Assembly: GCA_947470895.1 (NCBI GenBank)
Contig: CANIVF010000040.1
Coordinates: forward strand, 1 to 36,287
Source: Bacteroidota bacterium
GTDB taxonomy: Bacteria; Bacteroidota; Bacteroidia; Cytophagales; Cyclobacteriaceae
Length of the DNA stretch: 36,287 nucleotides
Reading direction: 5' to 3'
Both the position numbers and the translations under genes were made by a program. The notes below the pieces were generated by a model. That model did not search any database and was not told the DNA's origin. It worked only from the letters and a program-made list of their open reading frames with translations. Shown piece after piece: positions 5,348 through 28,312 of the stretch. Every line of letters begins with the position of its first letter. Position 1 is the first letter of the stretch.

Positions 5348-5352
5348 CATTG

Positions 5353-5487
5353 CTTATCCAGAAAGACCGAGGGAAAGGGCCCACTGACGTCTTAGCAACC
5401 TTGCTCATAACTTGGTGCTAACTCCCTTCTGCAAAGAACAATCGTATGCAGAGAAGATAGGCGGCCCCTCATCAGGCTCTTTCTGGA
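5353..5487 (+). promoter_or_regulatory. SAM-I (S-box) riboswitch
   Basis: An RNA aptamer for S-adenosylmethionine upstream of the methionine synthase genes. Conserved S-box segments appear in order: CTTATCCAGAAAGACCGAGGG, AAGGGCCCACTGACG, CTTAGCAACC, GGTGCTAACTCCC. The closing helix P1 is visible as 5358-5366 pairing perfectly (9 bp) with 5478-5486. A further helix joins CTTCTGCA near 5427 with TGCAGAGAAG near 5447. No U-tract terminator lies between the aptamer and the start codon at 5509, so control is probably at translation. An alternative 8-bp pairing of 5477-5484 with 5502-5509 reaches the start codon. Confidence 0.93.
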
Positions 5488-24647: not shown

Positions 24648-25028
24648 TCAGACTGAGAAAAGCTTTCTTAAGCTCAGCCAGAGTTGTTTTCGAGCTGGTT
24701 CATTTTCAAGAAGTTGAGTCAGGTTTTCGGAGCATATAAAAGAAAGTCCATTTGATTCCAGATTTTCGTACCGGGCTATTCCAGCTGGTAAATCTCCAAA
24801 ATAAATTAGTTTGTCTGTTCTTTTACTAAAGTTTTTGATATTTAGAGTTGGCTGAGAGGTAATGGTGATCGAGTCGATAGAAATTTTTAAGGCGGTAATA
24901 ATTTTAGTAAGAAGCTCGCGCTCTTTTCCCCCGAGTTTTTCCCAATCCTGGTTGATGACAACCATAGGTTTGGAATTGATTTGGAAAATTTCTTCTTGAT
25001 AGGTGGTTACAAATATTTCTTGATCCAT
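24648..25028 (-). CDS. Uncharacterised protein, possibly HolD (psi)-like
   Basis: 126 residues, no signal peptide or membrane helix. I do not firmly recognise it. The layout is an N-terminal hydrophobic strand (KPMVVIN), a helix (RELLTKIITALK), then strands KLIYFGD and GLSFICSE. It ends with LTQLLENEPARKQLWLSLRKLF, an Ala-Arg-x-x-Leu-Trp helix that resembles the end of E. coli HolD and related uracil-DNA-glycosylase-like folds. That would make it a candidate clamp-loader psi-type protein. This is a weak fold-level inference. Its ATG overlaps the thioesterase stop by one base (TGATG), so the two are cotranslated. hppA lies downstream with an independent promoter. Confidence 0.7.
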   Translation of the reverse strand: MDQEIFVTTYQEEIFQINSKPMVVINQDWEKLGGKERELLTKIITALKISIDSITITSQPTLNIKNFSKRTDKLIYFGDLPAGIARYENLESNGLSFICSENLTQLLENEPARKQLWLSLRKLFSV

Positions 25029-25552
25029 CAGTCCTCCAATTCAAATATGGATCTTAATTCATTTGCTTCCGATGGCTTCATCCTTCCGGTTAAAATTAAG
25101 CGTAATTGTCTTCTTCTCAATGCTCCATCGTATAGTGCTCTCTCTTCTTCATTTTCAGGTTCAATCTCAGGCACCTCTACAGGTTTTCCTTCTTTATCAA
25201 CAGCCACAAAAGTGAAGTAAGCCGTATTGCTGGCTACTTTTTTTCCTTCCGGGATATTTTCGGCATCAACATCGATTCGTATTTCAATGGAAGAGTTAAA
25301 TGCCCGGGTTACTTTAGCTCTCAGCGTCACTACATTTCCCAATTGGATAGGAGAGCGGAATGAAATATTATCGACCGAAGCTGTCACAACGGTGCTGTTC
25401 GAATGCTTTTGCCCAGCAATGGCAGATACAATATCCATCCAATGCATCAAACGCCCCCCCATGAGATTATTGAGTGTATTTGTGTCGTTTGGCAAAACGA
25501 GTTCGGTCATGCTGACTAGCGACTCTCGTGGATATTTTTTCTTTCTTGTCAT
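25028..25552 (-). CDS. Hotdog-fold acyl-CoA thioesterase
   Basis: 174 residues of the YciA/BFIT type, which hydrolyse acyl-CoA to free fatty acid and CoA. The family block is LPNDTNTLNNLMGGRLMHWMD at about residues 20-40, followed by VVTASVDNISFRSPIQLGNVV and the strand NTAYFTFVAVDKEGKPVEVP. The charged tail (EEERALYDGALRRRQLRL) is typical. The usual N/D-x-H-x-x-G pattern reads DTNTLNNLMGG here, with threonine in place of histidine. It is the first gene of a two-gene unit and divergent from the thr leader. Confidence 0.87.
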   Translation of the reverse strand: MTRKKKYPRESLVSMTELVLPNDTNTLNNLMGGRLMHWMDIVSAIAGQKHSNSTVVTASVDNISFRSPIQLGNVVTLRAKVTRAFNSSIEIRIDVDAENIPEGKKVASNTAYFTFVAVDKEGKPVEVPEIEPENEEERALYDGALRRRQLRLILTGRMKPSEANELRSIFELED

Positions 25553-25632
25553 ATTTCAATCGATGGCAATAAACAAATGAGTGTTTGTTCGGTTTTATTA
25601 ATCACAAAAATCATAAAAAAACTTTGCAATAC

Positions 25633-25755
25633 ATGCAGTCAATTTGCTTCTTGCGTGAAATAGTTATAAACGTGTTGATTCTGAGCACCAATTATATCAC
25701 TCTTTCTTTCTCAATCTTAATTGAGAAAACAACTATTATTACCATTACGGGGTAG
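25633..25755 (+). CDS. thrL: Threonine operon leader peptide (putative)
   Basis: A 40-codon frame from ATG 25633 to TAG 25753-25755. Its last ten residues are EKTTIITITG, so seven of the last eight codons are Thr or Ile. The enterobacterial ThrL peptide has the same kind of run (TTITTTITITTG) and the same position upstream of thrABC. Threonine and isoleucine are end products of this pathway, so the codon run is the expected sensor. The 5' end is uncertain: TTG or GTG codons at 25651, 25672 and 25675 would give shorter peptides. The stop is 103 bases before thrA. The first 30 residues show no bias and may be partly untranslated. Confidence 0.72.
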   Translation: MQSICFLREIVINVLILSTNYITLSFSILIEKTTIITITG

Positions 25756-25778
25756 CTCCCGATATACCTGCTTTTCTC
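25707..25778 (+). promoter_or_regulatory. Attenuator-like RNA structures in the thr leader
   Basis: Three pairings can be read directly. 25707-25715 pairs perfectly with 25720-25728 (9 bp, loop CTTA), ending just before the Thr/Ile codons. 25748-25752 pairs with 25757-25761 around the leader stop codon. 25723-25729 (GAGAAAA) can pair with 25772-25778 (TTTTCTC). The first and third share bases and are mutually exclusive, as expected of an attenuator switch. I see no hairpin with a following U-run before thrA, so the termination step is not identified. The rest of the 25553-25858 spacer shows no further gene. Confidence 0.5.
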
Positions 25779-25858
25779 CGACATCCTAGAGTTCTCATTA
25801 AAATCAAGTTGAATGTATTTTCAGCGTAGACATTTTTGTCAGATCATTAATTTATAAT

Positions 25859-28312
25859 ATGAAAGTCTTAAAGTTTGGGGGTTCATCAGTAGCCAATCCC
25901 TCCAGAGTTAAATCCGTAATTGATGTTTTAAGTCCTTATATACATATAGAAAAGATAGCTGTGGTGTTCTCTGCTTTTGGAGGAGTTACCGATATTTTAA
26001 TTTCATTGAGCACCTGGGCGCTTGAGGGAAAATCAGAATACAAGGAACAACTTCAAGCTTTAGAGCAACGGCATTTGGTTGCTGTTCGTGAGTTAATAAG
26101 TATTCAAAAACAGAGTTCAATCATAGCCAATGTGAAATTTACCATCAACGAGCTTGAAGATGTACTTCATGGAGTTTATCTGGTAAAAGAAAGAACACCA
26201 AGGACGCTTGATTACATCATGAGCTTTGGTGAACGTCTTTCCACGTACATTATTTCTGAGGCCATGAAAGAAATAGGTTTGAATGCCGAATTTTTAGACG
26301 CAAGGAAAGTTATTCGGACAGATAATCATTTTGGTTATGCTCGTGTGGATTTCGAAGTAACGAATCAGTTAATTCAGGAATATTTCAATACTCATGATGC
26401 TATTCAAATCATTACTGGCTTTATTGGATCATCAGAAACTGGCGAAACAACGACAATTGGAAGAAGTGGATCAGATTACACCGCAGCTATTTTTGCTGGA
26501 GCATTAAAGGCAACTTCGCTGGAGATTTGGACAGATGTTGATGGTATGATGACGGCTGATCCCCGTAAGGTAAAAAAGGCTTTTACGGTAAAAGAGATGA
26601 CCTATCATGAGGCCATGGAGCTTTCGCACTTTGGAGCAAAAGTTATTTTCCCTGCCACGATGCAGCCCGCCATGTTAAATCATATTCCTATCTGGATTAA
26701 AAATACATTCAACCCAACATTTGAAGGAACCGTGATTAAGCAAACTTCCAAAAATAAAAGTCTCATCATTAAGGGAATTTCTTCGATGGATAAAATCAGC
26801 TTGCTCAATGTTCAGGGAACTGGTTTGATGGGTGTAGTAGGAGTTTCCATGCGATTGTTCAGTGCTCTGGCCAGCCAAAAAATCAATGTTATTTTAATTA
26901 GCCAGGCTTCTTCGGAACATTCGATTTGTTTAGCTATTGAAACATACAAAGTGAAACAAGCTAAAACTGCCATTGAAAAGGAATTTCAATATGAGATCCG
27001 AGGTAAGGAGATGGATGAGGTTCTGGTTGAAAACGATCTTGCCATTGTGGCTATAGTAGGGGAGAATATGAAGCACAACCCGGGTACTAGCGGAAGAATG
27101 TTTAGTGCACTGGGAAAGAACGGTATTAACATTAGTGCGATAGCACAAGGATCATCGGAGTTAAACATTTCAGCCGTGGTGCATGAACAAGATGTTGCCA
27201 AGGCGTTAAATGTTTTACACGAAGCATTTTTCTTATCGGACCGCAAGGTGTTGAATATATTTCTTGTTGGCACAGGCTTGATAGGCAAATCACTCCTATC
27301 TATGATTAACAAACAATTTCATCAACTGGCTTCTCAAAACCATTTGGAGATCAATGTTGTGGGTATTGCCAACAGTAAGAAAATGATTTTTGATGCTAAT
27401 GGTCTTTCATTGGGAAAAGTTGTAGAAAAGATGAAGGCCTCTGGGGAAGCGATGGGCATGAATGATTTCTTTGGAAATATGATTGCTCTCAATTTATCCA
27501 ATAGCATTTTTGTTGATTGTACCTCTAGTGAAGAGGTGGCGGAATACTATTCTTCAATCTTGTCATCGAATATTTCAATCGTAACGCCAAATAAAAAAGC
27601 GAACTCCGGACCGTTTGAACGTTATCGGAATTTAAAGTCAATCTCACTGAAACGCGGAGTGAAATTTTTATATGAAACCAATGTAGGAGCAGGGCTTCCG
27701 GTAATTAATACCATGAATGATTTGCTGTTAAGCGGTGATCGCGTGATACGCATTGAAGCCGTGCTAAGTGGCACACTGAATTTTATTTTCAGTTCTTTTA
27801 CAGAAGGCAAACATTTTAGTGAAGTAGTGAAGGAGGCAAAAGAAAAAGGATACACGGAACCAGATCCGCGAGATGACCTCAATGGAATGGACGTGGCACG
27901 CAAAGTACTTATTCTTTCTCGTGAATCTGGTTTGCTCCTAGAACTGCAAGATATACAAGTTGAAAACCTTGTTCCGAATGATTGTAAGGGTGAATTATCA
28001 ATTAGTGAATTTTTCGATAGACTTTCTGCTCATGATACTGACTTTGAAATTCTCAGAAGAGAAGCGGCAGTCAAAAATGAAAAATTAAGATATATGGCTG
28101 TGCTGGAAAATGGAAAGACAACTATTCGATTGGGGTCAGTAAATGATCAGCATCCATTTTATTCCCTGAAGGGAAGTGATAATATAATATTGTTGACAAC
28201 GGAACGATATCATGATCGGCCAATGGTCATAAGAGGGCCGGGTGCTGGGGCAGAAGTTACGGCTGCCGGTGTATTTGCTGATGTTATACGAATTGGTAAT
28301 TATTCAAATTAA
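25859..28312 (+). CDS. thrA: Bifunctional aspartate kinase/homoserine dehydrogenase I
   Basis: Catalyses the first and third steps from aspartate to threonine and methionine. 817 residues, full length. The aspartokinase domain begins KFGGSSVANPSRVKSV, with GRSGSDYTAA near residue 200 and EIWTDVDGMMTADPRKV. Two ACT regulatory modules lie at roughly 310-455, including ISQASSEHSICLAIE and NISAIAQGSSELNIS. The homoserine dehydrogenase starts with the NAD(P) loop VGTGLIGKS at 470-478 and holds TNVGAGLPVINTMNDLL, SGTLNFIFS and YTEPDPRDDLNGMDVARK. The ACT domains imply feedback inhibition by threonine. It is first of thrA-thrB-thrC, behind a leader peptide. Confidence 0.97.
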   Translation: MKVLKFGGSSVANPSRVKSVIDVLSPYIHIEKIAVVFSAFGGVTDILISLSTWALEGKSEYKEQLQALEQRHLVAVRELISIQKQSSIIANVKFTINELEDVLHGVYLVKERTPRTLDYIMSFGERLSTYIISEAMKEIGLNAEFLDARKVIRTDNHFGYARVDFEVTNQLIQEYFNTHDAIQIITGFIGSSETGETTTIGRSGSDYTAAIFAGALKATSLEIWTDVDGMMTADPRKVKKAFTVKEMTYHEAMELSHFGAKVIFPATMQPAMLNHIPIWIKNTFNPTFEGTVIKQTSKNKSLIIKGISSMDKISLLNVQGTGLMGVVGVSMRLFSALASQKINVILISQASSEHSICLAIETYKVKQAKTAIEKEFQYEIRGKEMDEVLVENDLAIVAIVGENMKHNPGTSGRMFSALGKNGINISAIAQGSSELNISAVVHEQDVAKALNVLHEAFFLSDRKVLNIFLVGTGLIGKSLLSMINKQFHQLASQNHLEINVVGIANSKKMIFDANGLSLGKVVEKMKASGEAMGMNDFFGNMIALNLSNSIFVDCTSSEEVAEYYSSILSSNISIVTPNKKANSGPFERYRNLKSISLKRGVKFLYETNVGAGLPVINTMNDLLLSGDRVIRIEAVLSGTLNFIFSSFTEGKHFSEVVKEAKEKGYTEPDPRDDLNGMDVARKVLILSRESGLLLELQDIQVENLVPNDCKGELSISEFFDRLSAHDTDFEILRREAAVKNEKLRYMAVLENGKTTIRLGSVNDQHPFYSLKGSDNIILLTTERYHDRPMVIRGPGAGAEVTAAGVFADVIRIGNYSN

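What the first reader, a model, noticed from the sequence alone, without database searches (positions are those of the whole stretch)
25633..25755. Unmarked thr leader peptide in a Bacteroidota thrABC operon
A short frame upstream of thrA ends EKTTIITITG then TAG, a Thr/Ile run like that of enterobacterial ThrL, and sits exactly where an attenuating leader peptide belongs. Translation-coupled attenuation is best known in Proteobacteria, so a readable case in a Cytophagales-like genome, with a different peptide body and longer spacer, deserves attention. What I see is the codon run and the position; its regulatory role is inference.
Basis: partly seen in the sequence, partly recalled or inferred. 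Interest (0 to 1): 0.8.

Follow-up and report, generated by a model that had tools for sequence, protein, structure and literature searches.

The report
Threonine leader peptide with stop-codon hairpin
A tiny threonine/isoleucine-rich reading frame in front of this bacterium's threonine genes is real and conserved, and it seems to switch the genes with a layout that lacks the usual terminator hairpin and instead wraps the stop codon in a small hairpin.

Summary
The Thr/Ile frame ending EKTTIITITG-TAG (25753-25755) upstream of thrABC is a real, conserved leader ORF: its ending recurs in 39 of 42 same-genus and 7 of 20 other same-family thrA upstreams (0 of 33 in other families of the order, some of which have other forms), with all four Thr codons used. 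The start is probably GTG 25672, not ATG 25633.

Leader attenuation itself is ordinary in this genome: his, phe, trp and ilv leaders end in strong intrinsic terminators. The thr leader differs: no terminator follows; its stop codon sits in the loop of a GC-rich hairpin, as in 69 of 80 leaders chosen by Thr/Ile content alone against 20 of 917 control stops, with unrelated stems in several families; then comes a C-rich, G-poor spacer, often with CATAT. Stop-hairpin and terminator-type thr leaders did not coincide in any of 183 upstreams.

Best reading: ribosome stalling at Thr/Ile codons, with a non-intrinsic, perhaps Rho-dependent, off-switch. Sensing is well supported by sequence; the off-switch is inferred, without expression data. 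New variant of a known kind.

The parts
25623..25654 (+). Promoter-like elements of Bacteroidota type (consensus recalled): TTTGCAA (25623-25629) and TTCTTGC (25648-25654)
   Evidence: By eye: in relatives TTTGCAA is followed about 25 nt later by TTATTTCG, TTATTGC or TTCTTGC; transcription start inferred at about 25660, not mapped
25672..25755 (+). Thr/Ile leader ORF, 27 codons from GTG 25672 (TTG 25675 also in frame) to TAG 25753-25755: (M)LILSTNYITLSFSILIEKTTIITITG
   Evidence: In-frame Thr/Ile run and start position conserved
25729..25749 (+). Control codons ACA ACT ATT ATT ACC ATT ACG (Thr, Ile)
   Evidence: 73% Thr+Ile in frame over 63 leaders, all four Thr codons used
25707..25728 (+). 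Hairpin P1 inside the ORF, just 5' of the Thr run: TTTCTCAAT / ATTGAGAAA, loop CTTA
   Evidence: z -5.3 in the window; 66 nt before the last codons: mean z -1.8 against +0.3 for a control stretch in own family
25748..25761 (+). Hairpin P2: CGGGG / TCCCG with the stop codon TAG in the loop (TAGC)
   Evidence: and, with leaders chosen without regard to hairpins, (69 of 80 against 20 of 917 control stops)
25762..25807 (+). C-rich, G-poor spacer without intrinsic terminator (possible Rho loading region); GATATACC, a near match to the CATAT element, just after P2
25808..25825 (+). Weak hairpin P3 (GTTGAA / TTCAGC); CTGAAA / TTTCAG-like hairpins are seen near this place in close relatives
   Evidence: By eye; not supported by fold statistics (mean z -0.45 over 63 leaders) nor by the RNAalifold consensus of 12 relatives
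25859..28312 (+). thrA: bifunctional aspartokinase / homoserine dehydrogenase
   Evidence: Pfam PF00696, PF22468, PF00742
28319..29254 (+). thrB: homoserine kinase (GHMP kinase; the substrate is inferred from the operon)
   Evidence: Pfam PF00288, PF08544
29291..30592 (+). thrC: threonine synthase (ORF listed from TTG 29291; ATG 29294 in frame)
   Evidence: Pfam PF14821, PF00291

Best explanation
This is a threonine/isoleucine-sensing leader-peptide attenuator of the thrABC operon. A short ORF (about GTG 25672 to TAG 25755) is translated as the leader RNA is made. When charged tRNA-Thr or tRNA-Ile is scarce the ribosome stalls in the Thr/Ile run, close enough to cover the 5' arm of hairpin P2 (stop codon in its loop), so that P2 stays open and the RNA behind RNA polymerase is shielded. 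When both are plentiful the ribosome terminates at the stop codon and leaves, P2 forms, and the naked, C-rich, G-poor stretch before thrA lets transcription be ended by something other than an intrinsic terminator, most likely Rho. Shown by sequence: the conserved leader ORF, the conserved P2, the lack of a terminator, the C>G bias, and a Rho gene in the genome. Inferred: stalling, P2 as the off signal, Rho action, and the regulatory response itself.
For: Leader conservation and frame. P2: of 80 leader stops chosen by Thr/Ile content alone, 69 lie in the loop of a hairpin of at least 4 pairs (73 in or beside one), against 20 of 917 other stops; arms differ and even swap between families (CGGGG/TCCCG, ACCCC/GGGGT, CATGCCC/GGGCATG), so the hairpin rather than its sequence is kept. 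No upstream classed as stop-hairpin (73 of 183) has a terminator of 8 or more pairs with 4 or more G-C after the leader stop, while nine terminator-type thr leaders (stems of 8-15 pairs) and the own-genome his, phe, trp and ilv leaders (12-13 pairs) have one. C minus G in the 60 nt after the stop averages +10.5 over 50 own-family leaders, against -2 to +3 in eight terminator-type loci and -8 to 0 in the four own-genome leaders; with the hairpin arm left out it is at least 5 in 41 of 50 own-family and 14 of 25 other-family leaders, against 12.8% of window intergenic 50-mers. Rho present over its curated cut-off. Covering the Thr run and P2 hardly changes computed thrA start accessibility (mean change 0.022), which speaks against a translational switch.
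Against: No expression data. C>G bias is a weak predictor of Rho action: 9 of 50 own-family and 11 of 25 other-family leaders miss the threshold, other-family leaders average only +3.1 with the hairpin arm included (4 of 25 at 8 or more), a stretch 90-150 nt upstream of the leader stop is mildly C-biased too (mean +2.9), and the random controls come from one window. The CATAT element is not explained by Rho, has two spacings, and the window has only a near match. Two genus members (L036, L038) have TGG in place of the stop in the hairpin and end three codons later, so the stop need not be in the loop. P2 is short in many GCGCCC forms (three G-C pairs) and its energy is only mildly better than shuffles (mean z -1.2). 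Thirteen of 63 leaders have marginal terminator-like matches of 5-8 pairs.
Confidence: 0.5

Rival explanations
1. A classical ribosome-mediated attenuator whose terminator is simply weak or non-standard (for example P3 or AT-rich hairpins before T runs); P2 is the usual 1:2 pause hairpin, which in E. coli trpL also has the leader stop codon in or near its loop (recalled).
For: Other leaders of the genome are classical. Three other-family stop-hairpin loci (L205, L215, L223) have AT-rich hairpins followed by T runs after CATATAAT (by eye). P3-like hairpins recur in close relatives (by eye); 13 of 63 own-family and 10 of 28 other-family leaders have a marginal terminator-like match.
Against: No terminator-like site in 25500-25900. 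Of the 13 marginal own-family matches (5-8 pairs), several are P2 itself, and the two longest other-family ones (L218, L227) lie upstream of the Thr run. P3 is no more stable than shuffles. RNAalifold on 12 close relatives showed no antiterminator pairing.
Confidence: 0.22
2. P2 is a signal read by RNA polymerase or by a ribonuclease: a hairpin-stabilised pause, or a hairpin-guided cleavage, at the CATAT element downstream of P2; the stalled ribosome prevents it.
For: CATAT within 42 nt after the stop in 52 of 76 leaders against 5.0 expected by shuffling; 30 of 52 start 13-17 nt after the stop codon, by my count 8-11 nt after P2. It occurs in families that share no stem sequence.
Against: In 18 leaders, most of them of the window's subclade, it starts 4-7 nt after the stop, and 27 of 75 leaders, the window among them, lack it near the stop, so a strict ruler is not kept. 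No pause or cleavage data.
Confidence: 0.2
3. Translational switch: the ribosome position in the leader ORF opens or closes the thrA start codon.
For: Known for other uORFs, for example toiL/topAI in E. coli (PMC12121999, abstract read).
Against: Computed accessibility of the thrA start hardly changes when the Thr run and P2 are kept single-stranded (mean 0.022, range -0.081 to 0.226, 50 leaders); the distance from leader stop to thrA varies from 75 to 193 nt in own-family leaders.
Confidence: 0.06
4. Chance ORF.
For: None beyond its shortness.
Against:: conserved in frame with synonymous variation over 63 distinct leaders.
Confidence: 0.01

Closest known systems
thrL leader of the enterobacterial thrABC operon (recalled; Rfam Thr_leader, accession recalled)
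   Same: Short ORF rich in Thr and Ile codons directly upstream of thrABC; a Thr-Gly near the end
   Different: No Rfam match other than a SAM riboswitch elsewhere in the window, none to a leader family in 20 tested loci at E up to 1; no intrinsic terminator; different peptide body
Leader-peptide attenuators of his, phe, trp and ilv in the same genome
   Same: Same control-codon principle: HGHHHH, FYFFYFFY, WWW and Leu/Val/Ile-rich peptides
   Different: All four have 12-13 pair terminators with T tracts; the thr leader has none
Terminator-type thr leaders of other Bacteroidota (L197, L200, L202, L203, L204, L210, L191, and L053 and L073 in the window's own family)
   Same: Thr- or Thr/Ile-rich leader before thrA
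   Different: Terminator of 8-15 pairs; in the seven that the classifier recognised, no stop-codon hairpin
Bacteroid-trp RNA motif (RF01692; listed in PMC2864571, passages read)
   Same: Putative cis-regulatory RNA of Bacteroidota; by its name linked to trp
   Different: No covariance-model match
tnaC, and the Rho-dependent cys leaders proposed for Mycobacterium (PMC1262725, passages read)
   Same: Leader peptide followed by a region without conserved terminator hairpins, with Rho proposed
   Different: tnaC senses free Trp through its nascent chain (recalled); here the peptide body is not conserved, so codon stalling is more likely

Membership tests
Ribosome-mediated amino-acid operon attenuator (leader-peptide class) | Short ORF with a run of codons for the pathway product, directly upstream of the operon | tested here: met
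Ribosome-mediated amino-acid operon attenuator (leader-peptide class) | Control codons conserved in frame in relatives while the flanks change | tested here: met
   Ending in 39 of 42 genus and 7 of 20 family upstreams; Thr+Ile 0.73 in frame against 0.01 and 0.02; peptide bodies differ. The run is thin (2 Thr in the last 12 codons) in L041 and L043
Ribosome-mediated amino-acid operon attenuator (leader-peptide class) | Intrinsic terminator (stem plus U tract) between leader ORF and first gene | tested here: not met
Ribosome-mediated amino-acid operon attenuator (leader-peptide class) | Antiterminator/terminator alternative pairing | tested here: inconclusive
   RNAalifold on 12 close relatives keeps only P1 and P2
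Ribosome-mediated amino-acid operon attenuator (leader-peptide class) | Operon expression rises when Thr or Ile is short | not testable with these tools
   No expression data
Rfam Thr_leader and other Rfam leader families | Covariance-model match | tested here: not met
Rho-dependent leader-peptide attenuator (tnaC-like outcome) | Rho gene in the genome | tested here: met
   TIGR00767, 656.3 bits, over cut-off
Rho-dependent leader-peptide attenuator (tnaC-like outcome) | C-rich, G-poor untranslated stretch after the leader stop | tested here: met
   for the own family (weaker in other families); C>G bias alone does not prove a rut site
Rho-dependent leader-peptide attenuator (tnaC-like outcome) | Termination lost when Rho is inhibited | not testable with these tools
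   Needs an experiment
Nascent-chain arrest peptide (TnaC type) | Conserved peptide sequence that arrests the ribosome | tested here: not met
   Peptide bodies are not conserved, and the last residues change with the hairpin (ITG, TTP, TTL, TTR, TMP)

The most novel reading that the evidence does not exclude
Bacteroidota have a second, widespread kind of thr leader attenuator without intrinsic terminator or antiterminator, in which a hairpin wrapped around the leader's stop codon is itself the sensor of whether the ribosome has left, handing the RNA polymerase to Rho or to a pause or cleavage site at a CATAT element; it and the classical terminator type replace one another among lineages.
Probability: 0.35. 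Interest if true: 0.78.

Novelty: new variant of a known kind. Interest (0 to 1): 0.56.

Why it matters
If true, it shows that leader-peptide control in Bacteroidota comes in two forms in the same cell, with thr using a compact design in which the ribosome's departure from a stop codon is read by a hairpin around that codon. Ready-made comparisons (the four terminator-type leaders of the same genome, lineages with a terminator-type thr leader, and natural stem swaps) make the role of Rho and of transcription-translation coupling in this phylum directly testable.

Tried and rejected
Rejected: ATG 25633 as the start. Rejected: known RNA family (in one search only an unrelated ctRNA hit below its gathering score, on the minus strand of L047). 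Rejected: translational occlusion of thrA. Rejected: nascent-chain arrest, since the peptide body is not conserved. Not convincing: P3 as a terminator. A whole-region fold of 25621-25880 was not unusually stable (z -0.80). Literature: searches listed no paper that I recognised as describing a thr leader of Bacteroidota with a stop-codon hairpin; only some listed papers were opened (passages of PMC4833913, PMC7366714, PMC9723704, PMC2864571 and PMC1262725, one whole section of PMC9723704, the abstract of PMC12121999). Vitreschak et al. 2004 (FEMS Microbiol Lett 234:357), seen only in the reference list of PMC1262725, was not read, so an earlier prediction of thr attenuators in this phylum cannot be excluded.

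Upstream regions read: 95 of the 138 genomes with a match (some matches are other aspartokinases or cut genes); 77 of the 80 loci (three lack the thrA start), 21 of whose 36 hits are identical to upstreams already in the first set; 88 of the 172 matching genomes, taken roughly from the best score down, so distant thrA genes are under-sampled. G097 is in both sets, so the 183 upstreams are 182 genomes. Selection: the own-family leaders were picked by the motif ACGGGN-stop, which holds the 5' arm, and 27 other-family stops were picked by eye, so its 74 of 76 (misses L079 and L203, the latter a terminator-type locus caught by the motif) is biased; one search repeats the test with leaders chosen by Thr/Ile content alone (misses: L079, L086, L092, L197, L203, L210, L240). 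The nine terminator-type loci were picked by eye; two of them, L191 and L204, were scored 'none' by the classifier. That classifier kept one candidate stop per upstream and favoured stops with a hairpin or a terminator. In one search a later stop than the likely leader stop was used for L203.

Full report
What was checked. A Thr/Ile content this high before a stop codon is reached by 1 of 2000 dinucleotide shuffles of the upstream 330 nt.

Conservation. ThrA was sought in 146 related genomes (138 with a match) and 95 thrA upstream regions were read. The ending ACGGGN-stop is present in 39 of 42 genus members, 7 of 20 further family members and none of 33 order members of other families. It is preceded by a Thr/Ile run, thin in L041 and L043 (2 Thr in the last 12 codons). 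The three genus exceptions are L036 and L038, where the stop has become TGG and the frame runs on for three codons with the hairpin sequence kept, and L092, whose thrA is only 40% identical but which has eight Thr codons and, by eye, a hairpin just before its stop. Over 63 distinct leaders, Thr+Ile make up 73% of the ten codons before ACG GGG in frame, against 1% and 2% in the other frames, and all four Thr codons are used (ACA 52, ACT 59, ACC 112, ACG 27), so the amino acids and not the bases are kept. Among 77 usable loci of a named-genome scan, 36 carry the ending, 21 of them identical to upstreams of the first set; they include Chryseolinea serpens, C. lacunae, Ohtaekwangia koreensis, Chryseosolibacter indicus and C. 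histidini, Parachryseolinea silvisoli and Dawidia soli. The Runella, Spirosoma and Dyadobacter loci lack it.

Start. In nine close relatives the frame is open for only 28-30 codons before the leader stop, so it cannot reach the place of ATG 25633. An ATG or GTG 15-41 codons before the stop is present in 57 of 58 distinct leaders, GTG in the window's subclade (25672). Just upstream, TTTGCAA is followed about 25 nt later by TTATTTCG, TTATTGC or TTCTTGC in relatives (by eye), which I read as the Bacteroidota -33 and -7 elements (consensus recalled); ATG 25633 lies between them.

Not exceptional in kind. The same genome has leader peptides MNNVQNIHGHHHHAYSTSGWSLF before hisG, MNSSRFYFFYFFYQSSAGLERESVC before pheA, MMMKNVNMAWWWHKSNFDM before trpE and a Leu/Val/Ile-rich peptide at the head of the ilv cluster (its first gene is an Aminotran_4 protein followed by an ILVD_EDD_N protein, and acetolactate synthase). 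Each is followed by a 12-13 pair terminator with a T tract. Leader-peptide attenuation in Bacteroidota has been noted in print: PMC9723704 (section read) for Flavobacterium psychrophilum, and PMC7366714 (passages read) mentions short ORFs reminiscent of leader peptides in Bacteroides thetaiotaomicron.

What is unusual. No terminator-like site is found at 25500-25900. Among 63 leaders of this type 13 have a marginal 5-8 pair match, several being the stop hairpin itself, and 10 of 28 other-family stop-hairpin leaders have one, whereas nine terminator-type thr leaders have stems of 8-15 pairs. Instead the stop codon lies in the loop of a GC-rich hairpin. With leaders chosen by Thr/Ile content alone, this holds for 69 of 80 (73 with the hairpin in or beside the stop) against 20 of 917 other stops in the same stretches; three of the seven misses (L197, L203, L210) are terminator-type. 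With leaders picked for the motif or by eye, a biased set, it is 74 of 76 against 78 of 2390. Stems differ between families: CGGGG/TCCCG and ACGGG/CCCGT in the window's family, ACCCC/GGGGT, CAACCC/GGGTTG and CATGCCC/GGGCATG elsewhere; the second and third pairs from the loop occur in both orientations (47 GC and 23 CG; 48 GC and 24 CG). The last codons change with the stem (ITG, TTP, TTL, TTR, TMP), which says that the RNA hairpin and not the peptide end is kept. In a phylum sample (88 of 172 matching genomes read), the classifier finds 28 stop-hairpin upstreams in five families, 5 terminator-type ones (one family), 1 with a run only and 54 without a recognised leader. By eye two further terminator-type loci of that sample (L191, L204) belong to other families, and two (L053, L073) lie in the window's own family. 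In the candidates kept by the classifier no upstream of the 183 has both features.

Other parts. A second hairpin (P1) precedes the Thr run: z -5.3 in the window, mean z -1.8 against +0.3 for a control stretch in the own family (50 and 49 leaders), and -1.7 against -0.7 in other families (25 each). After P2, CATAT occurs within 42 nt in 52 of 76 leaders against 5.0 expected, at two spacings; 27 of 75, the window with GATATACC among them, lack it near the stop. The 60 nt after the stop are C-rich and G-poor: 16 C and 8 G in the window, C-G of 8 or more in 48 of 63 leaders against 3.4% of intergenic 60-mers of this window, though a stretch 90-150 nt before the stop also averages +2.9. Own-family leaders average +10.5 (50) and other-family stop-hairpin leaders +3.1 (25), against -2 to +3 in eight terminator-type loci and -8 to 0 in the four own-genome leaders. 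With the hairpin arm left out, C-G is at least 5 in 41 of 50 and 14 of 25 leaders (window +6), against 12.8% of intergenic 50-mers.

Mechanism. A ribosome stalled in the last Thr/Ile codons would cover the 5' arm of P2 (footprint recalled); a ribosome that has finished and left lets P2 form. So P2 formation would report that Thr and Ile are plentiful, and with no intrinsic terminator the off step must be something else. Rho is my first choice: it is encoded, the spacer is C-rich and G-poor, and the same proposal was made for terminator-less cys leaders in Mycobacterium, there called rather weak by its authors (PMC1262725, passages read). A polymerase pause or RNA cleavage at CATAT, or a non-standard terminator, remain open. 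A translational switch is unlikely, as computed thrA start accessibility hardly responds. Stalling, the regulatory response and the role of P2 are inference; no expression data were available.

Relation to known systems. It works like a leader-peptide attenuator and meets the codon and position criteria, but fails the terminator criterion that defines the classical type and matches no Rfam leader family. A stop codon in or near the loop of the first hairpin also occurs in E. coli trpL (recalled), so that feature alone is not new; its conservation without a terminator, across families with unrelated stems, is what I did not find in print (searches; open-access library only).

Noticed in passing
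window 5351-5463 (+): SAM riboswitch (RF00162, 67.6 bits); the gene behind it was not examined.
   Followed up: no
L264, L268, L270, L271 (own genome, upstream of hisG, pheA, trpE and the ilv cluster): Four classical leader-peptide attenuators with intrinsic terminators in the same genome.
   Followed up: partly
upstream of the thr promoter in relatives, e.g. L011, L014, L018: A recurring palindrome-like ACTAAC-N-GTTAGT lies upstream of the thr promoter, on the side of the divergent thioesterase gene in the window; possibly an operator. Diverged in the window.
   Followed up: no
L197, L200, L202, L203, L210 (one family of the phylum sample): Thr leaders with strong terminators, some with G-rich stretches that could pair with the terminator's 5' arm: textbook-like thr attenuators in Bacteroidota.
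   Followed up: partly
L036 and L038: The leader stop TAG at the hairpin has become TGG; the hairpin sequence is kept and the frame ends three codons later.
   Followed up: no
L014 (G011) and L030 (G036): thrA frames with one in-frame stop inside (TAA and TGA); cause not examined.
   Followed up: no
window 24648-25028 (-): 126-aa ORF next to the thioesterase gene without any Pfam match at E 1e-5.
   Followed up: no
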